Shown: positions 9,329 to 63,439 of the stretch, one piece after another | Layout of the letters: each line of letters begins with the position of its first letter | Numbering within the stretch: the first letter of the stretch is position 1 | Virus record (IMG/VR): IMGVR_UViG_3300028045_000008 | Location: 1-64,000 of that record | Direction: 5' to 3' (one strand) | DNA length: 64,000 bases | Source: a virus | Made by a program: the position numbers and the translations under genes | The notes under the pieces: model-generated | Told to the model about the DNA's origin: nothing | Seen by the model: only the letters and a program-made list of their open reading frames with translations | The model's database searches: none

Positions 9329-10489
9329 ATGGCATTCAAGAAATTTAATGAAAATGATGTTTTCTATAACAGGATAAAAACATATCCAGATAATCATTTT
9401 GCCATATATGATGGGAAAGTCTATCGCCAGAGGGAGACAGAGATCTCTGGAGCCTTTGTGTCTAGTACACCGAACACTCCAACCGGCTTTGTTTCTCTAT
9501 ACGAGATGAATGTCGACAGGGCCGCTGATAGCACCGGGTTGATTTATCCGTTTGTTGTAAAGAATGGGACTTTGTCCAATTTTAATACAATATCGACCTC
9601 TGAATTTGGCTCCTTTTCTTATGGCGACACGATCAGTGGTTCATACCCCCTTACTGCTTCAATAAGCAGAGAATACTTTCAGCTTGGACAGTCCCGGCGC
9701 CACGTTGATGCTTTGTACAACACTTTAAATTATTACAATTATGTGAGCAAGCACTATGCGTTTAGCTCCAGCTTGGGAAACAAAGCTACCCAAGAACTGA
9801 ATTTGATTTCTATTCCTTCGATATTCTACGGATCTTCGATAAAGAAAGGATCAGTCGACCTAAAATATTATATTTCGGGATCTCTTATAGGTCAGGCAAG
9901 GGATATAAATAAAAATGGCGAGTTGATTCAGGTTGGGCCATCCGGAAGTGTTGGCTCTGGGTCTGTTGCTGGTGTTGTTCTATATACGGAGGGTTTCCTG
10001 GTCCTAACCGGCAGTTGGGATCTAGACCCCACCCCCAGGAGGTACCTCGGTGATCCAACAAATTTATCTTCCTCCTCTTGGCTTTTTTATGGGGTCGGAA
10101 CCAACGATAGTATTGGATCTGGCTGGATTCCGTTTGTCAATTATGAAATGGATTTTCAAGGAACAAACTATGTCCCAACGATTACTATGCTCGCTCACGC
10201 CCCAAAGGGCACCATGAACCACTCAAACAACCCGACTTACGTGAGGTATGGACAATCGCAAACTAATAACTCTTCCTCTAACTGGTTTATTGAGCCAGAA
10301 TTGGCGATAAAGAATACTACAGAGTCTCCGTATACGAATACAGAAGCACCATTTGAAAAAACGACTTACATTTCAAAAGTAGGCATATACGATGAAAACA
10401 GAAACCTCATTGGGATAGCTACCGTTTCAAAACCAGTGAAAAAAACAGAAAATAGGGATTACACCTTCAAACTAAAAATGGATTTTTAA
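9329..10489 (+). CDS. Putative tail structural protein (paralogue B), 386 residues
   Basis: Structural-type protein rich in Ser, Gly and Tyr, sharing its C-terminal domain with the gene just upstream. It contains repeated YGSS/SGS-type beta segments and no catalytic motif. It starts 9 bases after the previous stop. Its TAA overlaps the ATG of the RuvC-like gene by one base, so a structural gene is directly coupled to the first gene of the DNA-metabolism block. A baseplate-attached fibre or spike component is the likeliest reading, at low certainty. Confidence 0.7.
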   Translation: MAFKKFNENDVFYNRIKTYPDNHFAIYDGKVYRQRETEISGAFVSSTPNTPTGFVSLYEMNVDRAADSTGLIYPFVVKNGTLSNFNTISTSEFGSFSYGDTISGSYPLTASISREYFQLGQSRRHVDALYNTLNYYNYVSKHYAFSSSLGNKATQELNLISIPSIFYGSSIKKGSVDLKYYISGSLIGQARDINKNGELIQVGPSGSVGSGSVAGVVLYTEGFLVLTGSWDLDPTPRRYLGDPTNLSSSSWLFYGVGTNDSIGSGWIPFVNYEMDFQGTNYVPTITMLAHAPKGTMNHSNNPTYVRYGQSQTNNSSSNWFIEPELAIKNTTESPYTNTEAPFEKTTYISKVGIYDENRNLIGIATVSKPVKKTENRDYTFKLKMDF

Positions 10490-11007
10490 TGATCTTAGGT
10501 CTTGATATCAGTACAAGTATCACGGGTATATGTGTGCTTGATGAAAATCGCGAAATAGTATTTAATGATTATGTTGATACTAGAAAACTTAAATGCTTTT
10601 TTGACAAAACTGAGAAAGTAAGGGATACACTTAGGGAACTATCAAAAGTGTATCCGATAGAACACATCTACGTGGAGCAATCACTCCAGTCTTTCCGTAG
10701 CGGATTTTCTTCTGCTAAGACTTTGTCCACCCTGTCTCGCTTCAACGGCGTAGTATCCTGGCTATGTTATGAAATTTGGAAAGTAAAGCCAGAATATGTA
10801 GCAGCCATTTCTGCAAGAAAGCTCTGTGGGATAAAGATTCCCAGGGGCGAGAAAGCAAAGGAGGTTGTTATTAAATATCTCCTTGACAACGAAGCATCTT
10901 TTGTGGTAGAATATACAAGACATGGGAACGTTAAGCAGCACTATTATGATATGGCAGATTCGATTGTCATAGCGAGAGCGGCTTCAAAAATAATGCTTGA
11001 CAAATAG
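10489..11007 (+). CDS. RuvC-like Holliday-junction resolvase
   Basis: 172 residues, the usual size for RuvC-type nucleases. The RNase H-like fold is shown by GLDIS at residues 4-8 (Asp6), YVEQS at 61-65 (Glu63) and YYDMADS near 152-158 (Asp154/Asp157). These are the four acidic metal-binding positions expected in this family. In a T4-like phage such an enzyme would resolve branched recombination/replication DNA before packaging, the job gp49 (endonuclease VII) does in T4. The start overlaps the upstream stop (TAATG). The family is clear; the exact substrate is inferred. Confidence 0.85.
   Translation: MILGLDISTSITGICVLDENREIVFNDYVDTRKLKCFFDKTEKVRDTLRELSKVYPIEHIYVEQSLQSFRSGFSSAKTLSTLSRFNGVVSWLCYEIWKVKPEYVAAISARKLCGIKIPRGEKAKEVVIKYLLDNEASFVVEYTRHGNVKQHYYDMADSIVIARAASKIMLDK
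10883..10912 (+). promoter_or_regulatory. Possible weak sigma70-type promoter inside the RuvC-like gene
   Basis: TTGACA at 10883-10888 and TAGAAT at 10907-10912 are separated by 18 bases. It lies about 115 bases before a better promoter of the same type that precedes the primase gene. It may be a tandem element or chance. Confidence 0.3.
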
Positions 11008-11031: not shown

Positions 11032-11967
11032 ATGCAAGAAAAGTTATCGATAATAATAGACATACTCGGCACATTTCAGAGATCAAGTAGCGAATACTTA
11101 TTTAAATGCCCGTACTGCAAAGATAATAAACACAAATTCTCAGTCAATATAGAGAAGAATGTCTATAAATGTTGGCTTTGTGACGCCCGCGGCCGAAATC
11201 TTGGCCGGCTAGTAAAGAGATTCGGCACCTTTGCCGCAGAGGAGACATGGAAGGAGATTTCGGGAGACCGCCTTGATCTGAACGAATTCGATAACATGTT
11301 CGATGACCCCGCCAAAGAGATCCCGCAGGAAAAGATAATAGAAATGCCAGAATCTTTTAAGACGCTGACTTCGGATAGCCTGGATAGAACAGCGATAAAG
11401 GCCATGAACTACCTATTGTCCCGCGGCGTAAATCGATCAGATATACTGAGATGGAAGATCGGGTACTGCACGAAAGGAAAATATAAAAACAGAATTGTTA
11501 TACCGTCATTTAATGCCTCTGGCGACCTCAACTACTTTATTGCACGCTCCTATGTGGACGGTTACATCAGATATATGAATCCTCCAGCCCCGAAGGATAT
11601 TATTTTTAACGAATTATACGTCGACTTTGAAAAAGAGGTGGTCCTAGTTGAAGGCCTGTTCGACGCCATCAATACAGAAAACTCCATTCCAATCCTGGGC
11701 TCTTCCATAAGGGAGGGATCTAGATTGTTCAGAAAAATAATAAAGAAAGACACCCCCATTTTATTGGCATTAGATCCAGACGCTAAAAGTAAGTCACGCG
11801 CAATCAAAAGATTGCTATTAAGATACGGCATAGAGGTTAGAGAAGTGAAATATATCGATGAAAGGGACATCGGAGAGATGTCAAAAGAAGAAGTAATGAA
11901 ATTAAGCATCAATGCGCCAGTTGTAGGAGATTACGATAATCTCTTGTCGGCCATAACTGCAATTTAG
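11032..11967 (+). CDS. DNA primase with zinc-binding and TOPRIM domains
   Basis: 311 residues. The N-terminus has a four-cysteine zinc ribbon, CPYC at residues 26-29 and CWLC at 47-50, typical of DnaG/gp61-type primases for template recognition. The TOPRIM core follows, with VLVEGLFDAI near residue 203 (catalytic Glu) and LLALDPDAKS near 244 (DxD). It would make RNA primers on the lagging strand. No helicase domain is fused. There is no Shine-Dalgarno sequence before the ATG, and a consensus promoter places the expected transcript start at this ATG, so a leaderless mRNA is possible. Co-directional with the recombination nuclease downstream (10-base gap). Confidence 0.88.
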   Translation: MQEKLSIIIDILGTFQRSSSEYLFKCPYCKDNKHKFSVNIEKNVYKCWLCDARGRNLGRLVKRFGTFAAEETWKEISGDRLDLNEFDNMFDDPAKEIPQEKIIEMPESFKTLTSDSLDRTAIKAMNYLLSRGVNRSDILRWKIGYCTKGKYKNRIVIPSFNASGDLNYFIARSYVDGYIRYMNPPAPKDIIFNELYVDFEKEVVLVEGLFDAINTENSIPILGSSIREGSRLFRKIIKKDTPILLALDPDAKSKSRAIKRLLLRYGIEVREVKYIDERDIGEMSKEEVMKLSINAPVVGDYDNLLSAITAI

Positions 11968-11977
11968 GAGAAGTATT

Positions 11978-14900
11978 TTGAAGTTTGCACATATAGCAGA
12001 TACCCATATTAAAAATTTAAAGTATCATCACGAGTATAAGATCATATTCCAGAAAATATATGACTCTATTCGTGCAGAACAGGTTGATTACATTGTTCAT
12101 TGCGGCGATATTGCACACACTAAGACACAAATAAGTCCAGAATTTGTGGAGTTGTGCGCCGATTTTTTTAGAAATCTATCTTCTATAGCTCCAACCTATA
12201 TTATCCTGGGTAATCACGATGGAAACCTTCGCAACAGCAGTCGTCAGGACGCCTTAACACCCATTGTGGAAGCTCTGAACGATCCAAACATACATTTGCT
12301 TAAAAACTCTGGAGAAGTGCCTCTGAAGGGGAATATAACGCTAAATGTTTTGTCGGTTTTTGATGAGTCCGGCTGGGTGAAGCCATCGGATAAGGATAGA
12401 ATAAATATAGCCCTTTACCATGGGTCAGTATCTGGTGTAGTGACGGATACGGGCTGGGTAATGACTCACGGAGATCATCCTATCGAAATATTCGAAGAAT
12501 TTGATTACGCATTCTTAGGAGACATTCACAAGACTGATCAATCGATCGACATGCATGGAAAAATGAGGTACCCTGGGTCAACCATCCAGCAGAATCACGG
12601 AGAAACAGATGACAAAGGTTTCTTACTGTGGGAAATTCAAAACAAGGATGATTTTACTTGTCGACACATCGAAATCAAAAACCCCCGCCCATTTGTAACG
12701 ATTGAACTGACTCCAAAGGGGAAGATGCCAAAAGGCCTAAAAATACCTGAAAAAAGCCGGCTCCGCTTGGTTTCAAAAAATAATCTTCCACTGGATGTTA
12801 TGCGCAAAGCGACGGATGTGGCAAAAAGAAGATTCAGGCCCGAAAGTGTCACTTTCACTAATAGGGCCGCAGGCAGCAGGGGGAATGTAGAGGATATAAC
12901 AAATGGCTTAGAAGCAGAAGACCTCCGAAATATCAAAATTCAGGAATCGTTAATTAAAGAATATTTGAAAGATTATGAGCCAGATGGCGCCCTGATGAAA
13001 AGGATTTTGGACTTAAATCTAAAATATAACAAATTGGCGGAAGAGGGCGAAGAGGTTTCCAGGAATATTAACTGGAGTCTTAGAAAATTAGAGTTCGACA
13101 ACCTCTTTAACTACGGAGAGGGAAATTCTATTGATTTTGACAAGCTTGAGGGTATCGTAGGCATATTCGGAAAGAACTTTTCTGGAAAATCAAGTATCAT
13201 AGACTCTCTGTTATATACTATATTTAATTCTACCTCAAAGAACGATAGAAAGACCGTAAATATAATTAATCAGAATGAAGAGTCTGCCGAAGGTCAGGTG
13301 CATATAACAGTAGGAGATAAGGATTATTGTATTGCTAGGAGTTCTGAGAAGTGGACAAAGAATTTAAAGGGCGAGCAGACCATCGAAGCTAAGACTAATG
13401 TGACTTTCACCTCAATAGATGGTGAAACAGGCGCATGTGAAAATCTTAACGGCGAGAGTAGAACGAAGACGGATAAAAATATAAGAAAGATGTTTGGAAC
13501 TTTGGATGATTTCTTGCATTCATCTATGGCTAGCCAACTAGACTCCCTCGCTTTTATCAAGGAGGGGTCAACAAAAAGAAAAGAAATCTTAGCTAAGTTT
13601 TTAGACTTGAAGTTCTTCGAAGCAAAGTTCAAATTGGCTAAAGAGGATGCATCAAACACCAGGGGCGCCCTCAAGAAGCTGGAAAATAAGGACTTTGAAG
13701 AAGAAATTTCATTGGCCAAAGAAGAACTGGAAAAGAGCAACAATGATTTGAATGGAGTTAAGAAAGCGGTCGATAGATACAAGACAACCATTTCAGAACT
13801 CGAAAAAGAAATGTCTGAAGTCGGTGAAAAAATAAAGTCAGTACCCGCAGAGATAATCGATATTGCAAAAGTCCGCAAAGAACTGAGAGACAAAAAGAGA
13901 CAGATGGTCTCCATTAAGGATAAGAGCGATGAACACACCAAAAAAAGAGAGGATTATCGATATGATTACGAACAAATAGCGTGTTTTTTGAAGGAGTTCG
14001 ACGAAGAAGCCCTATACGGAAAACAGGAGAAGGTTGACGAATTCAAAGTGGCCATCGCGAACCTTGACGAATCTCTGTTTAGGGAGGAAAAAGATTTACA
14101 AGATAACCAAAAGAGAGTGCAACTGTTGAGTGGAATCCCATGTGGAACTTCTTTTCCGAAGTGCAAATTCATCCGAGATGCGTATGCATCAAAGGCCACT
14201 ATTCCAGTCAATCAGGGTAACTTGAGTGATTTAAATAAGCAGAAAGAGGATATAAGTTCGCAAATGAGCGACCTCGACCCATCTCTTATTGCTCTTCAAA
14301 TTGAGAAATATTGTGAAATTATCGATCGAAAGAACGAGCTTTCAAATTTGATAATGAACTGTAATCTAAATATCGAAAATAGTGCCTCCGCCATCGAGAA
14401 TCTTGTACTGCAAGTCGACAAGTTAGAGTCTAAAATTTCAACTTATGAATCAAATCGAGAGGCTATCGAAAATCTTGAGAAGCTTGTTGGGCGACAAGAG
14501 GAAATAAAATTTAAAAATGAATCATTAAGAGTAAAATTAACAGCATTCAACGATAAAATGATGGGGCTATATAAGCTGGTCGGATCTTTAGAACAAAAGC
14601 TGCAAAACGTTACACTTCAGCGGGAGGAATATTTAGATTTACGAGAGGAATATTCGGCCTACGACCTTTATATGAGAAGCATGCACTCGAATGGAATTGC
14701 CTTTGACGTTATCCGTAAAAAACTACCAGTAATCAATGAGGAGATCGCTAAAATTTTGGCAAATATCGTAGATTTTGAGGTATTTTTTGAAGATAATGAT
14801 AAGAGATTGGATATCTTCATCAAACATCCATCATATGATCCTCGCCCGCTAGAAATGGGTTCAGGCGCCGAAAAGACAATCTCTGCAATGGCTATCCGAT

Positions 14901-15130
14901 TAGCCTTGCTGAGTGTTTCTAGTCTTCCGAAGTCAGACATCTTTATACTTGATGAGCCAGGAACTGCCCTAGACGAGGAAAATATGCAAGGATTTATAGA
15001 TATCCTTGAAATAATTCGATCTTATTTTAAAACAGTGTTGCTGATCTCACACCTTGATAGTTTAAAAGATTGTGTGGATATGCAAATTACGATTGACAAG
15101 GGAAAAAAGTACGCTAGAGTGAGAGAGTGA
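11978..15130 (+). CDS. Single-chain Mre11-Rad50 (gp47-gp46, SbcD-SbcC) fusion
   Basis: 1050 residues in one frame. The first part is a Mre11/SbcD phosphoesterase: ADTHI (Asp8, His10), HCGDIAH (41-47), GNHDG (78-82), ALYHGS (His148) and GDIH (181-184). From about residue 365 a Rad50/SbcC ATPase begins: Walker A GKNFSGKSS (398-406), long charged coiled coils, a hook-like C722GTSFPKC729, a GSGAEK signature and Walker B IFILDEPGTALDE near 988. In T4 the two subunits are separate genes 47 and 46, which form the nuclease that resects ends for recombination-dependent replication. The TTG start at 11978 has AGGAG 7 bases upstream. The hook has six residues between cysteines instead of two. Confidence 0.93.
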   Translation: MKFAHIADTHIKNLKYHHEYKIIFQKIYDSIRAEQVDYIVHCGDIAHTKTQISPEFVELCADFFRNLSSIAPTYIILGNHDGNLRNSSRQDALTPIVEALNDPNIHLLKNSGEVPLKGNITLNVLSVFDESGWVKPSDKDRINIALYHGSVSGVVTDTGWVMTHGDHPIEIFEEFDYAFLGDIHKTDQSIDMHGKMRYPGSTIQQNHGETDDKGFLLWEIQNKDDFTCRHIEIKNPRPFVTIELTPKGKMPKGLKIPEKSRLRLVSKNNLPLDVMRKATDVAKRRFRPESVTFTNRAAGSRGNVEDITNGLEAEDLRNIKIQESLIKEYLKDYEPDGALMKRILDLNLKYNKLAEEGEEVSRNINWSLRKLEFDNLFNYGEGNSIDFDKLEGIVGIFGKNFSGKSSIIDSLLYTIFNSTSKNDRKTVNIINQNEESAEGQVHITVGDKDYCIARSSEKWTKNLKGEQTIEAKTNVTFTSIDGETGACENLNGESRTKTDKNIRKMFGTLDDFLHSSMASQLDSLAFIKEGSTKRKEILAKFLDLKFFEAKFKLAKEDASNTRGALKKLENKDFEEEISLAKEELEKSNNDLNGVKKAVDRYKTTISELEKEMSEVGEKIKSVPAEIIDIAKVRKELRDKKRQMVSIKDKSDEHTKKREDYRYDYEQIACFLKEFDEEALYGKQEKVDEFKVAIANLDESLFREEKDLQDNQKRVQLLSGIPCGTSFPKCKFIRDAYASKATIPVNQGNLSDLNKQKEDISSQMSDLDPSLIALQIEKYCEIIDRKNELSNLIMNCNLNIENSASAIENLVLQVDKLESKISTYESNREAIENLEKLVGRQEEIKFKNESLRVKLTAFNDKMMGLYKLVGSLEQKLQNVTLQREEYLDLREEYSAYDLYMRSMHSNGIAFDVIRKKLPVINEEIAKILANIVDFEVFFEDNDKRLDIFIKHPSYDPRPLEMGSGAEKTISAMAIRLALLSVSSLPKSDIFILDEPGTALDEENMQGFIDILEIIRSYFKTVLLISHLDSLKDCVDMQITIDKGKKYARVRE

Positions 15131-37835: not shown

Positions 37836-39034
37836 GTACATTTCGCGAGCATAAATCAGTTGCTGACCGCTCTGCTGCAGACCGTAAGCGCCATAAAAGA
37901 AAGATCGAGAAAGCCCTTAAAGAAGGCATCAAGGACGTGGTTGCAGACGAGTCGATTATCGGACAGGACGGAAAAAAGAAAGTAAAAATCCCCGTTAAAG
38001 GAATTAAAGAGTATCAATTCATTTACGGAGAAAACAAGAGTAATAAAAAAGCAGCTTCAGCGGGAGATAAACAGGTAAAAAAAGGGCAAATACTAAGAAA
38101 AAAGCCACAGAAAGGAAAGGGATCTGGAAAGAAGGCGAGTAATGAGCCCGGCGAGGAATACTATGAAGTAGAGATAACGTTGGACGAACTCGCAGAGTAT
38201 TTATTCGAAAACCTAAATTTGCCAGACCTACAAAAAAAGAAATTTAGATTTATCAAGGACAAAAAGCTTAGAAGAAAAGGGTACCGAAAGAAGGGGATCC
38301 GAACGAGACTCTCTAAGAAAGAAACGATAAAAAGAAAAATAAGAAGAAAGAAGCGTGCCATCGCAAGCGGAACTTTTGATCCGAATGGGGAAGAGAGATT
38401 CCCATTTCACCAGGATGACCTAAAATATAAACATATGAAGGAAAAGGACGTTGAAAGCAGTTCTGCTGTAGTCTTTTTCTTGATGGATGTATCAGGCTCT
38501 ATGGATAAACAGAAAAAGTACCTGGCTCGAAGCTTCTACTTCCTGTTATATCAATTTTTGCGGTACAGATATGAGAATATAGAAGTGGTCTTCATATCCC
38601 ACTCAACTGATGCCAAAGAAGTCAGCGAATCAGAGTTTTTTGAAAGAGCAACCTCCGGAGGCACCCTGATGTCTTCTGCTCTTGAGATGGAGAAGGAAAT
38701 TATAGAAAAGAGATATCACCCATCGTCGTGGAACATTTACACCTTTTATTGTGGTGATGGCGAAAACTGGTCGATAGATAACAAGAAATCACTAGACCTC
38801 ATAAAGAGTCTGTCTGAAATTAATCAGATGTTCTGCTATGCTGAGATCAATCCATTTCTGGCTCACGGATCAGATAACGATACATATTTCGCATTCAATA
38901 GTTCTCTGGATCCAAGCAGTATGTGGACTCGTCTGGCCCCACTTGAGAGTGAGGGGATAAAGAGAGTGAAGATCGCCGAGTCTAAGGACATTTGGCCTTC
39001 TTTTAATAAAATATTTGGAGGAGACCTCCCATGA
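37832..39034 (+). CDS. yeaH: DUF444 / YeaH-YhbH family protein with vWA domain
   Basis: 400 residues, close to bacterial YeaH/YhbH. The first 200 residues are strongly basic, as in the family. From about residue 212 a von Willebrand A domain starts with a complete MIDAS: D219-V-S-G-S223, T278 in SGGTLMSSAL, and D309 in YCGDGENW. In bacteria this family is encoded beside the PrkA kinase/ATPase and SpoVR. E. coli YeaH acts with YeaG under nitrogen starvation. The gene overlaps gp14-like by 4 bases and SpoVR by 4 bases, and sits in a late neck operon. All key metal residues are present, so it looks functional. Its phage role is unknown. Confidence 0.92.
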   Translation: MSTFREHKSVADRSAADRKRHKRKIEKALKEGIKDVVADESIIGQDGKKKVKIPVKGIKEYQFIYGENKSNKKAASAGDKQVKKGQILRKKPQKGKGSGKKASNEPGEEYYEVEITLDELAEYLFENLNLPDLQKKKFRFIKDKKLRRKGYRKKGIRTRLSKKETIKRKIRRKKRAIASGTFDPNGEERFPFHQDDLKYKHMKEKDVESSSAVVFFLMDVSGSMDKQKKYLARSFYFLLYQFLRYRYENIEVVFISHSTDAKEVSESEFFERATSGGTLMSSALEMEKEIIEKRYHPSSWNIYTFYCGDGENWSIDNKKSLDLIKSLSEINQMFCYAEINPFLAHGSDNDTYFAFNSSLDPSSMWTRLAPLESEGIKRVKIAESKDIWPSFNKIFGGDLP

Positions 39035-40335
39035 AAGACTGGACCATAAAAGAGTTACAAAGATATGACAAGGAAATCTGTAAAATTGCAGAAGAAAAAT
39101 ATGCCCTCGATTGGTTTCCTATAGAATATGAGATTCTAGATTATCATGAGATGCTGGGCGCCATGGCCTACAGTGGCTTGCCAACTCACTATCGTCACTG
39201 GTCATTCGGAAAAAACTTTGAAAGAACTTCTACTCGATACAATCTTGGAATGGAGGGCTTACCCTATGAGATGATCATAAACAGTAATCCAAGCATAGCC
39301 TATCTGATGCTTGAGAATCCAATGAGCATCCATCTGCTGACTATGGCTCACTGTGTTGGTCATTCTGATTTTTTTAAAAATAATCGCATGTTCAAAGAGA
39401 CAGATCCATCAAATATTATATCTAGGTTTAAATCTGCCTCAAAAAGAGTAAGAGATTATATAGAGGATCCCAGCATTGGAATCGATAGAGTGGAGGCGAT
39501 CTTAGACGCTTGCCACTCCATACAGTACCAAGTACCAAGAATTCCAGGCATTGTGAGAAGCCCAGCTAGCTCGAAAGAGGATAAAAACAACGAAGACAAT
39601 AAAAATTTGATTGGCGATTTGTTCCGTTTCGAAAATATTGAAGACTACAACTTGCTTGGTTTTATAAAAAACAATTCTCGCAATCTTGAAGACTGGCAAA
39701 GAGATCTGGTGGGGATGGTAGAGAGAAGGTCCTCGTACTTCATACCACAGGCTAGGACAAAGATTATGAATGAGGGCTGGGCTGTGATGATTCATGAAAA
39801 AATAATGAATGATCTAAACTTGCCGGACAAATATCAAATAGCCTTTTTGAAATCACACAACCAGGTCGTCCGTCCAATGTTGGGTAGGATCAATCCTTAT
39901 CATCTTGGCTACAACATGTTTAAGAAGATAGAGAGGGATCACGGATTCGAAGAGTGCAAGCTGGTTCGCGAGATTCATGACGATGAAGCGTTCATAAGAA
40001 AGTACTTGGATGAGGAAATGTGTAAAGAATTGAATCTCTTTAGCTACTCTTACAATAAGCCAGGTAGAAAATACGCAATTAATGACATTTCTGACAAAGA
40101 AGGGTGGAAAAGCGTGAGGGACGCCCTAATTAGTAATGTGGGACTTAACAGCGTCCCAGTTGTGCGCGTTGATAAATTTAATAAAAAAATGAATATTTTA
40201 TATCTAAAGCATGAACATGATGGTCGCGACTTGGAGATTAGCTACGCAAACAAAGTGTACGATCACATTAAATTTTTGTGGGATGATGATATAATATTTA
40301 CTTCCATTCTGGAAGGTGAACTATGGGAATTTTAA
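39031..40335 (+). CDS. spoVR: SpoVR/YcgB family protein
   Basis: 434 residues, against about 470-510 in bacterial SpoVR/YcgB, so it is nearly full length. Diagnostic motifs are THYRHWSFGKNFE (52-64), YEMIINSNPSIAYLMLEN (79-96) and AHCVGHSDFFKNN (106-118), followed by the DACHSIQY helix. SpoVR is needed for normal spore cortex in Bacillus; YcgB in E. coli belongs to the RpoS/nitrogen-starvation group with YeaG and YeaH. The biochemical activity is not established to my knowledge. The start overlaps the DUF444 stop (ATGA), and AGGAG lies just upstream. It is soluble with no signal peptide. Confidence 0.94.
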   Translation: MKDWTIKELQRYDKEICKIAEEKYALDWFPIEYEILDYHEMLGAMAYSGLPTHYRHWSFGKNFERTSTRYNLGMEGLPYEMIINSNPSIAYLMLENPMSIHLLTMAHCVGHSDFFKNNRMFKETDPSNIISRFKSASKRVRDYIEDPSIGIDRVEAILDACHSIQYQVPRIPGIVRSPASSKEDKNNEDNKNLIGDLFRFENIEDYNLLGFIKNNSRNLEDWQRDLVGMVERRSSYFIPQARTKIMNEGWAVMIHEKIMNDLNLPDKYQIAFLKSHNQVVRPMLGRINPYHLGYNMFKKIERDHGFEECKLVREIHDDEAFIRKYLDEEMCKELNLFSYSYNKPGRKYAINDISDKEGWKSVRDALISNVGLNSVPVVRVDKFNKKMNILYLKHEHDGRDLEISYANKVYDHIKFLWDDDIIFTSILEGELWEF

Positions 40336-45557: not shown

Positions 45558-48425
45558 ATGTCAGTCAAAAAGTTCAAATTTGTATCGCCCGGCGTATTTT
45601 TAAGCGAAGTTGACAACTCGCAATTACCGGCAGCAGAACGAGAAATCGGCCCACTTGTCGTTGGTCGTACCCAATTTGGCCCAGCCATGAGACCAGTCAC
45701 CGTTCAATCGTTTTCTGAATATGTCGAGACTTTTGGTAATCCGGTACCAGGCGGCGCCGGAGGAGATGTGTGGAGAGATGGGAACCAGCAGGGCCCAACA
45801 TATGCTGCATATGCAGCCCAAGCATATCTGAAGTCTGATGTCGGACCAGTGACAATGATTCGCCTTTTGGGAAGTCAAAATCCAGAGTTTCTTGGAAGTC
45901 CGGTGGCAGCAAACCGCGCATCCGCTGGGTGGGCAACGGAAGGGACAATTTCTCCCGGTAACGACGGTGGGGCCTACGCCCTGGTTGTCTGCAATAGCTC
46001 CTCATCTCCAGCAGGAGTGGCTCAAGATGCTGTCGTCGCGGCAATCTGGTACATGGACAGTGGTTCTATCTCTCTTAGCGGAACACTCGCCGGCCCAGCC
46101 GGCGCCACTGGACAGACAGGGTCATACGCCTTGTTCAAAAACAATGGCTCCTCCTTCAACCCAGAATACACAGCTATAATAAAAGACTCTCTTGGGAATG
46201 TGGTTCACAAAACAGCATTTAATGCTGATCCCGATTCCGCTAAGTATATCAGAAATGTCTTCAATACGAATCCTCAGTTAGTGAACTCTGACGTAGTGGA
46301 CACTACGGTTTTTAATCGCGGTGAAAATCTGTATTGGCTCGGAGAAACTTTCGAGAATACCATGGCAAAGCTCGTTTTGGGCGGAGACATAACAAACCCA
46401 GACGCAATGATTGTAGCCCTCGGAAACGCTGCTGGAACCGTCAGTAGATCTGATATGAAGCAGAATTATCAAGAAGCAGCCACCGGCTGGTTCATCTCGC
46501 AAGATCTAACTTCAGATGCCGCATCTTACGTCGCTTCCAACCAGAACAATCTGTTTAGAATTGTCGCTAGAGACGCTGGAGAGAACGCCCAGAACACTTT
46601 AAAAATATCAGTACAGAATATCAAACCATCTACCAGCTTACTGGATCAATATGGTACTTTCGATGTTGTGGTGAGAAGAGCAAACGACACAGACAACGTT
46701 GTTAAATACGTCGAGAGATATACAAATCTATCTTTGAATCCTTCATCTGAAAACTACATCGGAGTTAAAATTGGTGATAAATATACCATTTATGACGATG
46801 ACCAAAAGAGACTTAGAGAATATGGACAGTACGACAATCAATCGAAATACATTCGAGTAGAAATTAGAGATGATGTTGCCACTGGCCTGACTGATCCAAA
46901 AGCTCTACCATTCGGAGTCAGAGGACCAAAGGTCCCAGCAACAGTAACTATCGAGTCCGGTTCCGTGTCTATCACCACTCCAGGCGATGCAGATTCTATA
47001 TTGGTCACCGGCTCAGTGGCTGCTGACACGAAGGCTTCCCCTACATCGATGTATGACGCAGGCGGATACGCACAACACACATGCTCCATTCAGTGGCCAG
47101 CAGTGACTCTCCGCCTCTCAGCTTCTGACGGCGGCCTTGGAAACCCAACTGACGCATTTTTCGGCGCGCAGTCATCAACCCAGCTTTCCGTCAATGACAA
47201 TCTTAACTTTGATCCAGGCTGGGGAGATCTTCTGAGATCATTTCCTACCGCCCTTGAGGGAACTCTTGTAGATTCGTGGGTATTCTCCCTGGATGAAGTT
47301 GTCACTTCTGGTTCAGCGACAGCCTTCTGGAAAGACGGCTCAAGAGCATCGCTTGATTCGGCCACTGCACAGGGGGATTATACTTCTATTTTGACAGATG
47401 GTTATGACAGCTTTACGGCCCCCCTTTACGATGGGTTTGACGGCCTCAATATCAAGGAGATCGAACCATTTAGAAACAGTGCCATGGGAGCCACTGATAA
47501 CGAGTACTCCAACTACGCATTTAACGCAATTCAACAAGCTCTCAACAGTATTTCCGACCCAGAAGTTGTAGAGTATAATCTACTCGCAGTACCTGGGCTG
47601 ACTAACACAAAATTGACGCAACATATGATAAACATTTGCGAAGACAGAGCAGACGCTCTCGCAGTCGTCGACCTCGAAGATGTGTATGCTCCTTTTACAG
47701 AGAATACTAAGGCATTTCAGGAAAGAGTTAGTACCCCGAATGACGCAGTGAACGCACTTAGACTGAGGCAAATTGATTCTTCTTACGCATGTACCTATTT
47801 CCCATGGGTCCAGGTCCGAGATACTATCGCCTCTAGATTACTCTGGGTCCCGCCTTCCGTAATAGGACTTGGCGTCATGGCGAACTCCGAGGCCAAATCA
47901 GAGGTATGGTTTGCACCTGCAGGATTTAATCGTGGAGGTCTTACAGAGGGCTCTGCCGGATTACCAGTCGCAGGCCTGACATATAAGCTGACCTCGAAAG
48001 ACAGGGATCTTCTTTATGATGCGAGTGTTAATCCAATCGCCTCATTCCCATCGGAAGGCATTGTCGTTTTCGGACAAAAAACTATGCAGGTTAAGAGATC
48101 AGCACTCGATCGAATTAACGTGAGAAGGTTGATGATCTTCATTAAGAAACAGGTATCCAGAATATCTTCTGGCCTCTTGTTTGATCAGAACGTTAGCGTG
48201 ACTTGGGAGAGGTTCCTAAATCAGGTTAATCCGCTGCTGTCAAGTATCCAGTCGAGATTGGGATTGACCGAATTTAAGGTTGTTCTCGATGAGACGACCA
48301 CTACTCCGGACTTGGTAGATCAGAACATCATGTATGCTAAGATATTCTTGAAGCCTGCAAGAGCTATTGAGTTTATCGCAGTTGATTTTGTGATTACGAG
48401 ATCTGGCGCATCTTTTGATGACTAA
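45558..48425 (+). CDS. 18: Contractile tail sheath protein (gp18-like)
   Basis: 955 residues, larger than T4 gp18 (659), with extra beta domains in the middle. The N-terminus KKFKFVSPGVFLSEVDNS, followed by VGRTQFGPAMRP, is the typical sheath start. The C-terminal third is also diagnostic: VWFAPAGFNRGGL, a long conserved block, INVRRLMIFIKKQ, then EFKVVLDETTTTPDLVDQN and FVITRSGASFDD. It forms the contractile tube around gp19 and powers injection. It is preceded by a late-type box and TAGGAGAAA. The tube gene follows after 54 bases. Confidence 0.94.
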   Translation: MSVKKFKFVSPGVFLSEVDNSQLPAAEREIGPLVVGRTQFGPAMRPVTVQSFSEYVETFGNPVPGGAGGDVWRDGNQQGPTYAAYAAQAYLKSDVGPVTMIRLLGSQNPEFLGSPVAANRASAGWATEGTISPGNDGGAYALVVCNSSSSPAGVAQDAVVAAIWYMDSGSISLSGTLAGPAGATGQTGSYALFKNNGSSFNPEYTAIIKDSLGNVVHKTAFNADPDSAKYIRNVFNTNPQLVNSDVVDTTVFNRGENLYWLGETFENTMAKLVLGGDITNPDAMIVALGNAAGTVSRSDMKQNYQEAATGWFISQDLTSDAASYVASNQNNLFRIVARDAGENAQNTLKISVQNIKPSTSLLDQYGTFDVVVRRANDTDNVVKYVERYTNLSLNPSSENYIGVKIGDKYTIYDDDQKRLREYGQYDNQSKYIRVEIRDDVATGLTDPKALPFGVRGPKVPATVTIESGSVSITTPGDADSILVTGSVAADTKASPTSMYDAGGYAQHTCSIQWPAVTLRLSASDGGLGNPTDAFFGAQSSTQLSVNDNLNFDPGWGDLLRSFPTALEGTLVDSWVFSLDEVVTSGSATAFWKDGSRASLDSATAQGDYTSILTDGYDSFTAPLYDGFDGLNIKEIEPFRNSAMGATDNEYSNYAFNAIQQALNSISDPEVVEYNLLAVPGLTNTKLTQHMINICEDRADALAVVDLEDVYAPFTENTKAFQERVSTPNDAVNALRLRQIDSSYACTYFPWVQVRDTIASRLLWVPPSVIGLGVMANSEAKSEVWFAPAGFNRGGLTEGSAGLPVAGLTYKLTSKDRDLLYDASVNPIASFPSEGIVVFGQKTMQVKRSALDRINVRRLMIFIKKQVSRISSGLLFDQNVSVTWERFLNQVNPLLSSIQSRLGLTEFKVVLDETTTTPDLVDQNIMYAKIFLKPARAIEFIAVDFVITRSGASFDD

Positions 48426-61022: not shown

Positions 61023-61814
61023 ATGGGATTAGATTTAACAAAAATTCAAGCACGGCTTGATAACGTAAAGAGCAACGGCAAAGCCGGAGGTTCCTTCTGG
61101 CGCCCACAGGATGGTCAGCAGGTTATCCGTATCGTTCCGACTTCGGACGGTGACCCTTTCAAGGATTATTGGTTTCACTATAACCTCGGCCCAGAGCAAC
61201 GCGGTGGATTGATATGTCCGAAGAAAAATCATGGAGATGATTGCCCTATCTGTGACTTCAAGGATCAGCTTTGGAAGGAATATAATAGCACGCAAGACAC
61301 AGACACTCTTAAGTTGGCCAAGGATATGACACCTCGACAACGCTTCTTCTCTCCAGTAATGGTCCGAGGGGAAGAGTCTGGTGGAATTCGAATCTGGGGA
61401 TATGGCAAAGAAGCTTACACCTCGTTGTTGAATCTGGTTCTAAATCCCGAATACGGAGATATCACTGACGTCGACGCAGGGACAGATCTGACTTTGACGT
61501 ATGGCAAGCCTCCTGGCGCTAACTTCCCAAAGACAACTTTGACACCTCGGCGCCGCACTTCTCCGCTTTGTGATGAAGCTGTTGGCGGCGATGAAGAGTG
61601 CTCACGCCTGCTGGAGAATATTCCAAACTTCGACAATCTCTTTCCGACCAAGTCCTTAGAGGAGGTTCAAGAGGCCCTCGATTCCTTCATGGCTTCGCTT
61701 GGAGACTCCGCCGACCCTGTCGCCGGAATTGATCTAACAGACTCGGAAGCTTATAAACCAGCCTCTAGTTCAACTGAAGTTTTGTCAGCTTTCAACGAGC
61801 TAACAGGAAATTAA
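61023..61814 (+). CDS. 32: Single-stranded DNA-binding protein (gp32-like)
   Basis: 263 residues (T4 gp32 is 301). The OB-fold start FWRPQDGQQVIRIVP (25-39) and a metal site built from Cys65, His70, Cys74 and Cys77 (CPKKNHGDDCPIC) are typical of gp32-type proteins in marine T4-like phages. The C-terminal 50 residues are moderately acidic, the expected partner-binding tail, but less acidic than in T4. It covers single-stranded DNA during replication and recombination with UvsX. It has its own consensus promoter and hairpin leader; AGGAG lies 8 bases before the ATG. Confidence 0.9.
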   Translation: MGLDLTKIQARLDNVKSNGKAGGSFWRPQDGQQVIRIVPTSDGDPFKDYWFHYNLGPEQRGGLICPKKNHGDDCPICDFKDQLWKEYNSTQDTDTLKLAKDMTPRQRFFSPVMVRGEESGGIRIWGYGKEAYTSLLNLVLNPEYGDITDVDAGTDLTLTYGKPPGANFPKTTLTPRRRTSPLCDEAVGGDEECSRLLENIPNFDNLFPTKSLEEVQEALDSFMASLGDSADPVAGIDLTDSEAYKPASSSTEVLSAFNELTGN

Positions 61815-61876: not shown

Positions 61877-62320
61877 ATGTCGACAGTAAAAAATGGTGAT
61901 CACGTTTTGGTTAATTACCGCGGGACACTTGAAGATGGAGCAGAATTTGATAACTCATATACTCGCGGAGAGCCCTTGGCAGTCAAAGTGGGAGATGAAA
62001 GGTTGATCGCCGGCTTTAGCAACGCTATTGTAGGTATGTCAATCGGAGAGAAGAAAGAGGCGCTGCTAGCCCCAGAAGATGCCTATGGCCCACCCAACCC
62101 CGCCGCAGTGACACACATCGATCGTTCTGCGTTCCCGGAAGATTTGGAACTACAAGTTGGTATGCCAATCCCACTATCGAATGCAGAAGGCTCAACGGCA
62201 GTCGGACATGTAACTCAAATTAATGAGCAAGCTATTACGGTCGACTTGAACCACCCCCTTGCAGGAAAGAGCCTATTGTTTGAAATTGAACTGGTCGAGA
62301 TCACAGAAGAAGGAACATAG
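61877..62320 (+). CDS. FKBP-type peptidyl-prolyl isomerase (SlyD/FkpB-like)
   Basis: 147 residues. The FKBP core is visible as VLVNYRGTLEDGAEFDNS (11-28), then LIAGFSNAIVGMSIGEKK and a closing LLFEIELVEI strand. Between them AYGPPNPAAVTHIDRSAFPE marks the IF (insert-in-flap) chaperone domain of SlyD/FkpB-type enzymes. It lacks the His/Cys-rich metal-binding tail of E. coli SlyD. It would catalyse prolyl cis-trans isomerisation and hold folding clients in the cytoplasm. Its place between SSB and UvsX, ending one base before the UvsX start, suggests co-expression with early DNA proteins. Confidence 0.9.
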   Translation: MSTVKNGDHVLVNYRGTLEDGAEFDNSYTRGEPLAVKVGDERLIAGFSNAIVGMSIGEKKEALLAPEDAYGPPNPAAVTHIDRSAFPEDLELQVGMPIPLSNAEGSTAVGHVTQINEQAITVDLNHPLAGKSLLFEIELVEITEEGT

Positions 62321-63439
62321 ATGGCTAAAAAAACAACATCACCTGGTAAGCTATCTCTGGGAGATATGCAGAAGATTATCAATAAAAAGGCGGGAATGAA
62401 CGTTGCCCATAACCTGAAGGAAAAGAATCCGACAGAAGTTACGCAATGGATTCCGACGGGATCTCGTTGGCTTGATTCTATTATTTGTCGAGGAAAGCTT
62501 TCCGGAATTCCGGTGGGCAAGGTTACGGAAATCGCCGGCCTTGAAGCGACTGGGAAGTCATATATGGCCGCTCAGATCGCAGCAAACGCCCAAAAGATGG
62601 GAGTGGATGTTGTTTATTTTGATTCGGAATCGGCCATTGACCCAACCTTCCTTGAGAACACCGGATGCGATCTCGACAAGTTACTTTATGTTCAAGCAAC
62701 CTCTGTCGAGTTCGTTCTGGAAACCATGGAGGAGCTTCTTGGTTCAGACAACCAGATCCTCTTTATCTGGGATTCTCTGGCATTGACTCCCGCAATTTCC
62801 GACGTCGAGGGGGATTTCAACCCTCAGTCATCTATGGCGATGAAAGCTCGTATTTTAGCGAAAGGTATGTCGAAGTTGACACTAGCAATCGCAAACACTA
62901 AATCGACTTTCCTAGTCCTAAATCAGCTAAAGACAAATATTACCCGCTCTCCCAGCGAGGCTATGACTACCCCGTATGTTACTCCCGGCGGAAAAGCCAT
63001 GATTTATGCGTATTCTTTACGCATCTGGCTCACCGGTCGCAAGGCAAAAGCTAGTTTCGTCTTGGATGATAATGGATTCCGCATTGGGTCAGAAGTCAAA
63101 GTAAAGCTTGAGAAGTCAAGGTTCGGAACACAGGGTCGACGCTGCAACTTTCGAATTTTATGGGGAGGAGATCAGGTCAGCATCCAAGATGATGAGTCCC
63201 TTTTTGAGGCCGTCAAGGGCTCTGACAACATCAAGCAATCCGGCGCCTGGTTTACAATGGTTTTCGACGACGGATCGACTGAAAAGTTCCAAGCCTCAAA
63301 GTGGGCCGACAAGATGCAGGACGATAAATTTCGACAAAGAGTATATCAGATCATCGATGAAGAGATCATTTATAAATTTGATAATCGGCAAGGAAAAGCA
63401 GAAGATTTTTACGAAAATGAAGAGACTATAGAGATTTAA
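62321..63439 (+). CDS. uvsX: RecA-like recombinase (UvsX)
   Basis: 372 residues (T4 UvsX 391). Walker A GLEATGKS (73-80), Walker B ILFIWDS (146-152), the QLKTNI segment near 204 and the PGGKAMIYAYSLRIWLT region near 224 are typical of UvsX/RecA. It forms filaments on gp32-coated single-stranded DNA and drives strand exchange for recombination-dependent replication, together with the Mre11-Rad50 fusion that makes the ends. It starts directly after the FKBP stop. No UvsY-type mediator was identified in the window. Confidence 0.93.
   Translation: MAKKTTSPGKLSLGDMQKIINKKAGMNVAHNLKEKNPTEVTQWIPTGSRWLDSIICRGKLSGIPVGKVTEIAGLEATGKSYMAAQIAANAQKMGVDVVYFDSESAIDPTFLENTGCDLDKLLYVQATSVEFVLETMEELLGSDNQILFIWDSLALTPAISDVEGDFNPQSSMAMKARILAKGMSKLTLAIANTKSTFLVLNQLKTNITRSPSEAMTTPYVTPGGKAMIYAYSLRIWLTGRKAKASFVLDDNGFRIGSEVKVKLEKSRFGTQGRRCNFRILWGGDQVSIQDDESLFEAVKGSDNIKQSGAWFTMVFDDGSTEKFQASKWADKMQDDKFRQRVYQIIDEEIIYKFDNRQGKAEDFYENEETIEI

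What the first reader, a model, noticed from the sequence alone, without database searches (positions are those of the whole stretch)
11978..15130. Mre11 and Rad50 fused in one 1050-residue chain with a CX6C hook
A complete phosphoesterase (Asp8, His10, GNHDG, GDIH) and a complete SMC-like ATPase (GKNFSGKSS, signature, Walker B) lie in one uninterrupted frame. In T4 and bacteria these are two subunits (gp47/gp46, SbcD/SbcC). The apex of the coiled coil has C722 and C729 separated by six residues, unlike the usual CXXC zinc hook. A fusion fixes the stoichiometry and may change how two complexes join.
Basis: partly seen in the sequence, partly recalled or inferred. Interest (0 to 1): 0.66.

Follow-up and report, generated by a model that had tools for sequence, protein, structure and literature searches.

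The report
Phage Mre11-Rad50 fusion with variable hook
A marine tailed phage makes the two halves of a universal DNA-break repair machine as one protein; such fusions were reported in 2011 and are common in ocean phages, but the small cysteine clasp at the tip of this one is unusual and has changed type several times between related phages.

Summary
One uninterrupted 1050-codon frame (11978-15130, TTG start with an AGGAG site) encodes an Mre11 nuclease, capping domain and Rad50-binding helices, an about 8-residue linker, and a complete Rad50. C722 and C729 lie in the predicted apex loop. It is not a sequencing error: about 100 full-length homologues are fused at the same place, and hundreds more were detected. 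The fusion is not novel. Yoshida, Claverie and Ogata (2011, PMC3175470) described Mre11/Rad50 fusions from Mimivirus R555, inferred that the abundant marine homologues belong to phages near primase genes, and noted the same His-to-Asp change at a metal ligand. This window shows such a gene in a contractile-tailed phage with UvsX-, gp32- and RuvC-like genes, fitting a T4-like recombination role. What I did not find described is the hook. 75 of 101 homologues have Cx6C, 8 have Cx7C, 14 have CxxC forms and a few have others. On trees, one CxxC form changes about 6 times while the flanking coiled coil stays with its own lineage. That points to repeated exchange of a short apex segment. The spacing as a zinc site and any role in partner choice are untested.

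The parts
11978..15130 (+). Mre11-Rad50 fusion gene, 1050 aa, TTG start
   Evidence: same frame in about 100 homologues
11966..11970 (+). AGGAG ribosome-binding site 7 bases before the TTG start
   Evidence: GGAG-type site before TTG/GTG/ATG starts in nearly all of 25 homologues
11978..12673 (+). Mre11 nuclease domain, residues about 1-232; GDIH at 181-184
12692..12862 (+). capping-domain region, residues about 239-295, followed by a low-confidence stretch 296-312
   Evidence: AlphaFold2 secondary structure and pLDDT; assignment by position
12932..13045 (+). helix pair 319-333 and 337-356, the expected Rad50-binding helix-loop-helix
   Evidence: order matches the description in PMC3175470
13046..13069 (+). 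fusion linker, residues 357-364, with invariant R362 and N363
13070..13609 (+). Rad50 ATPase N-terminal lobe, Walker A GKNFSGKSS at 398-406
13610..14131 (+). ascending coiled-coil arm, residues 545-718
14132..14164 (+). apex loop (hook), residues 719-729, C722 and C729 in IPCGTSFPKC
14165..14683 (+). descending coiled-coil arm, residues 730-902
14696..15127 (+). Rad50 ATPase C-terminal lobe: signature, Walker B, D-loop, H1025
11032..11967 (+). DNA primase gene directly upstream, conserved neighbour
   Evidence: phrog_47 E 6e-49; a primase homologue lies on 88 of 93 related loci with more than 1 kb upstream, directly adjacent in 51
10489..11007 (+). RuvC-like Holliday junction resolvase
   Evidence: phrog_159; found on 76 of 93 of those loci
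62321..63439 (+). UvsX-like recombinase
   Evidence: phrog_97 E 6e-56
61023..61814 (+). single-strand DNA binding protein
   Evidence: phrog_1192 E 5e-27

Best explanation
This is the phage's only detected Mre11-Rad50 (gp47-gp46, SbcD-SbcC) machine, made as one chain and belonging to the R555-like fusion family known since 2011. Two chains would pair as in other Mre11-Rad50 complexes: Mre11 domains side by side, Rad50 heads closing on ATP, and coiled-coil arms joined at the apex by metal held between C722/C729 of each chain. The complex would process and hold DNA ends so that the phage's UvsX and single-strand binding protein can start recombination-dependent replication. Shown here: domain order, intact ATPase motifs, seven of eight metal ligands with an invariant Asp at the eighth, apex position of the two cysteines, conservation of the fusion, and partner genes in the same genome. 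Inferred: dimer form, metal binding by Cx6C, nuclease activity and role in replication. The apex segment appears to be exchanged between phages as a short unit (inferred from trees).
For: Domain matches. Catalytic columns: D8, D44, N79, H80, H148, D182 and H184 in 101 of 101, H10 in 100. AlphaFold2 model mean pLDDT 80.5 with the expected order of domains. Best viral fold matches span the whole chain and are giant-virus proteins: Tupanvirus, Harvfovirus, Yasminevirus, Catovirus. PDB matches include Mre11 and Rad50 structures from Chaetomium, E. coli, Thermotoga and archaea. UvsX, single-strand binding protein, RuvC-like, primase, DnaB-type helicase, DNA polymerase and contractile tail sheath genes in the same genome. 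One match only in the 114-kb record. Fused rows form one side of a branch against 12 unfused phage pairs. Prior description.
Against: No biochemical evidence. The 114-kb record is linear and probably a fragment (relatives reach 190-204 kb), so a second, unfused pair elsewhere is not excluded. The model is a monomer with pTM 0.52; its coordinates could not be read and no dimer was modelled. Asp182 in place of His might alter nuclease activity.
Confidence: 0.85

Rival explanations
1. The long frame is a sequencing or assembly error that joins two genes.
For: Mre11 and Rad50 genes are adjacent or nearly so in that order in T4-like and other phages, so a lost stop could join them.
Against: The same fused frame is found in about 100 independent contigs and in the sequenced phages Microcystis Mel-JY01 and, more remotely, Tenacibaculum pT24 and PTm1, Chryseobacterium MA9V-1 and Sphingomonas PAU. 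Junction residues are invariant.
Confidence: 0.01
2. The two cysteines of the apex are not a metal hook. They stabilise the loop within one chain (for example a disulfide or intramolecular metal), and the arms join by other contacts.
For: Cx6C is more widely spaced than the canonical motif. Three of the 101 homologues have neither a CxxC nor a Cx6C or Cx7C pair at the apex: L093 and L101 have Cx1C and L096 has Cx3C.
Against: Both cysteines are kept in the PC-type hooks, C729 is invariant in the alignments, and relatives exchange Cx6C for CxxC at the same place, which suggests that the two forms do the same job.
Confidence: 0.25
3. The fused protein is a structural or end-tethering ATPase whose nuclease is weakened, because the metal ligand matching His206 is Asp.
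For: GDIH is invariant in 101 homologues, and the same change was noted in Mimivirus R555.
Against: All other ligands are invariant or nearly so over wide divergence, which is unlikely for a dead enzyme. Asp can bind Mn2+ (general knowledge). Two unfused T5-like phage SbcD proteins also have GDLH.
Confidence: 0.12

Closest known systems
Mimivirus R555-like Mre11/Rad50 fusion proteins (Yoshida, Claverie and Ogata 2011, PMC3175470)
   Same: Same domain order in one chain, same Asp in place of P. furiosus His206, a linker of similar size, marine phage carriers predicted with primases on the same scaffolds.
   Different: Phage version is shorter (1050 against 1351 aa). R555 itself was not available, so its hook was not compared. 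The 2011 work had no complete metagenomic homologue of the R555 type, because the scaffolds were short.
Fused genes of deposited phages: Microcystis Mel-JY01, Tenacibaculum pT24/PTm1/PTm5, Chryseobacterium MA9V-1/-2, Sphingomonas PAU
   Same: Single gene spanning both parts, annotated as AAA protein, DNA repair or metallo-phosphoesterase.
   Different: Mel-JY01 is 31% identical and has a CxxC hook (EYDPKCKHCC). The others were found through the remote fusion L004 at about 23-24% identity to that protein, not directly with this one.
T4 gp47/gp46 and other two-gene phage Mre11-Rad50
   Same: Same domains, same gene order, same kind of recombination partner genes.
   Different: Two chains. 11 of 12 unfused phage pairs read here have a CxxC hook; Moorella phage MTATph1 has C-x7-C.
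E. coli SbcCD and cellular Mre11-Rad50 with CXXC zinc hook
   Same: Fold of nuclease and ATPase.
   Different: Two chains; conserved CXXC hook (PMC9569753; PMC6969161).

Membership tests
R555-like Mre11/Rad50 fusion proteins | Mre11-like domain N-terminal to Rad50-like domain in one frame | tested here: met
R555-like Mre11/Rad50 fusion proteins | Asp replacing P. furiosus Mre11 His206 | tested here: met
   D182, GDIH in 101 of 101; stated for R555 in PMC3175470
R555-like Mre11/Rad50 fusion proteins | Whole-chain similarity to giant-virus fusion proteins | tested here: met
   Tupanvirus A0A6N1NVE8 E 1.7e-61, 24% identity over 1318 columns; R555 itself not compared
Mre11/SbcD nuclease | Eight metal-binding residues D,H,D,N,H,H,H,H | tested here: inconclusive
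   Seven of eight present and the eighth is Asp; activity not testable
Rad50/SbcC ATPase | Walker A, signature, Walker B, and a two-arm coiled coil between ATPase lobes | tested here: met
Canonical Rad50 zinc hook | CXXC at the apex | tested here: not met
   C722 and C729, Cx6C
Canonical Rad50 zinc hook | Two cysteines in the apex loop between the arms | tested here: met
   loop 719-729 between helices 676-718 and 730-766
Canonical Rad50 zinc hook | Zinc-mediated dimer | not testable with these tools
   needs biochemistry or a structure

The most novel reading that the evidence does not exclude
The apex hook is an exchangeable specificity element. Related phages carry different homologous hook types (Cx6C, Cx7C, CxxC), swapped by short-range recombination, so that Mre11-Rad50 complexes of one phage join with themselves and not with those of a relative infecting the same cell.
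Probability: 0.15. Interest if true: 0.65.

Novelty: new variant of a known kind. Interest (0 to 1): 0.38.

Why it matters
The fusion confirms with long phage contigs what was inferred in 2011 from short reads: single-chain Mre11-Rad50 is a normal, abundant phage recombination protein. A single-chain complex with a fixed 1:1 ratio is a convenient object for structural work. The mixed hooks offer a natural experiment on what the Rad50 hook does. If the apex can change repeatedly between Cx6C and CxxC while everything around it is kept, then the hook is a replaceable clasp, as artificial hook-to-hinge swaps in yeast suggested (PMC6969161), and selection may act on which clasp is carried.

Tried and rejected
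Sequencing error: rejected by the family. Plasmid relatives: only short Mre11-like matches in Burkholderia plasmids, no fusion found this way. Bacterial chromosomal homologues: 14 loci in genome contigs, most of them short MAG contigs; the WOR-3 chromosome copy (L116) ends in a run of N and looks like misplaced phage sequence. Whole-coil exchange as the cause of hook change: one pair (L074/L099) looked like it, with heads 91-98% and most of the coil 34-62% identical, but synonymous sites are near saturation, and coil trees place the DxC-hook rows with largely the same neighbours as head trees, so only the apex is proposed to switch. Convergence of the CxxC hook: unlikely, since HEYDPxCxxC...FVK shares 13-20 of 22 residues between independent branches, and 13-15 with Mel-JY01. 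Rfam found no intron in the L003 insert. Literature search with exact phrases for the fusion found nothing; a word search found the 2011 paper.

Full report
The observation. The frame at 11978-15130 is open for 1050 codons without a stop. It starts with TTG preceded by AGGAG, and nearly all of the 25 homologues examined have a GGAG-type site before a TTG, GTG or ATG start at the same place. Pfam places a metallophosphoesterase at 1-185 and SMC_N at 368-1027; PHROGs places the phage SbcC family at 300-1048. The cysteines are at 722 and 729.

Anatomy. AlphaFold2 with a 32-row alignment gave mean pLDDT 80.5 and pTM 0.52. It shows the nuclease (about 1-232), a capping region (239-295), a low-confidence stretch (296-312), two helices (319-333, 337-356) where the Rad50-binding helix-loop-helix should be, an eight-residue link, the Rad50 N-lobe from strand 365-374, arms of about 174 residues each (545-718 and 730-902), and the C-lobe. 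The apex loop is 719-729, so C722 and C729 lie exactly in it. Fold search finds giant-virus whole-chain relatives first and Mre11 and Rad50 structures in the PDB.

Is it an artefact? No. Every complete locus of the close family carries one fused frame. Junction residues R362, N363 and W366 are invariant down to 24% identity. In the phage collection, Mel-JY01 has the same fusion. A huge-phage record has it interrupted by an inserted frame with a TnsA-like endonuclease domain. Tenacibaculum, Chryseobacterium and Sphingomonas phages have remote fused versions. On a tree with 12 two-gene phage pairs the fused rows fall on one side of a 99% branch, so one origin within this sample is not excluded; long branches limit this.

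Prior knowledge. Yoshida, Claverie and Ogata (2011, PMC3175470) described Mimivirus R555 as an Mre11/Rad50 fusion, listed twelve more in bacteria, plasmids, eukaryotes and a Bacillus phage, and showed that R555 homologues abound in aquatic viral metagenomes. They inferred phage carriers from neighbouring genes including primases. They also noted the Asp in place of His206 and a linker of 9-12 residues. The present gene fits this: Asp182, a short linker, and a primase directly upstream. A primase homologue lies on 88 of 93 related loci with more than 1 kb of upstream sequence, and directly adjacent in 51. The fusion is therefore not new.

Context and likely role. The carrier is a phage with a contractile tail sheath, a T4-type terminase and its own replication genes: a DNA polymerase III alpha-type polymerase, DnaB-like helicase, primase and exonuclease. 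UvsX-like recombinase, single-strand binding protein and RuvC-like resolvase are present. Only one match to this protein exists in the 114-kb record. By analogy with T4 gp46/gp47, as established for T4 and summarised in PMC3175470, the protein most likely resects and tethers ends for recombination-dependent replication. This role is inferred.

The hook. Among 101 full-length relatives, 75 have PC[GS]-x5-C (Cx6C), 8 have Cx7C, 11 have a distinct DxC-x2-C form (typically HEYDPDCxYCCENxFVKDA), 3 have other CxxC forms, and 4 were not classed by these patterns. One of those 4, the remote L004, has CVTC in its aligned apex region, which brings the CxxC forms to 14 or 15 depending on whether it is counted. 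11 of 12 unfused phage Rad50 proteins read here have CxxC, and the Moorella phage has Cx7C. On a tree of the heads the DxC-x2-C label needs 6 changes, all forced by well-supported branches; shuffled labels average 10.6, so the label follows kinship in part but has switched repeatedly. Trees of Mre11 alone, Rad50 heads alone, coil without hook and near-hook coil also need 6. The coil next to the hook keeps largely the same neighbours as the heads, so the apex changes while its flanks do not. The CxxC hooks of different branches share 13-20 of 22 residues, too many for chance re-invention. The best reading is two or more homologous hook forms exchanged or retained across the family; I favour local recombination, but incomplete sampling, fast tree methods and alignment at the apex are limits. 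A hook-to-hinge replacement works in yeast (PMC6969161), so a replaceable clasp is plausible.

Verdict. The fusion is real but belongs to a known kind. The Cx6C hook is real, typical of this phage family and not reported in the papers I could search; that search was small. Its repeated change is the part worth following. Interest is moderate.

Noticed in passing
L003:4665-5580 (LR756508.1, 484-kb phage): The fused gene is interrupted after the GDIH motif by a separate 305-codon frame with a TnsA-like endonuclease domain, probably a homing insert; no Rfam intron was detected.
   Followed up: partly
L116 (CP070664.1, WOR-3 MAG chromosome): A 61%-identical fused gene sits in a bacterial chromosome record but ends in a run of N, which suggests phage sequence scaffolded into the MAG.
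   Followed up: partly
genome 76874-77875 (L128:12874-13875): Adenylosuccinate synthetase-like gene: phrog_1211 (2-amino-adenylosuccinate synthetase) is matched, but NCBIfam scores for both PurA and PurZ are below cut-off; whether this phage makes diaminopurine DNA is open.
   Followed up: partly
genome 87304-88872 (L129:3304-4872): Phage-encoded GroEL-type chaperonin; an FKBP-type isomerase lies at window 61877-62320.
   Followed up: no
window 39031-40335 and genome 104339-107004 (L130:339-3004): A SpoVR-like protein, and an AAA ATPase next to a DUF2201 VWA-like protein, in a phage genome.
   Followed up: no
window 45558-48425: Tail sheath of 955 residues; the best matched PHROG sheath profile is 496 positions long.
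   Followed up: no
L139 and L142 (unfused T5-like Vibrio and Providencia phages): Their SbcD proteins also have GDLH in place of GHxH, so the Asp ligand is not restricted to fusions.
   Followed up: partly
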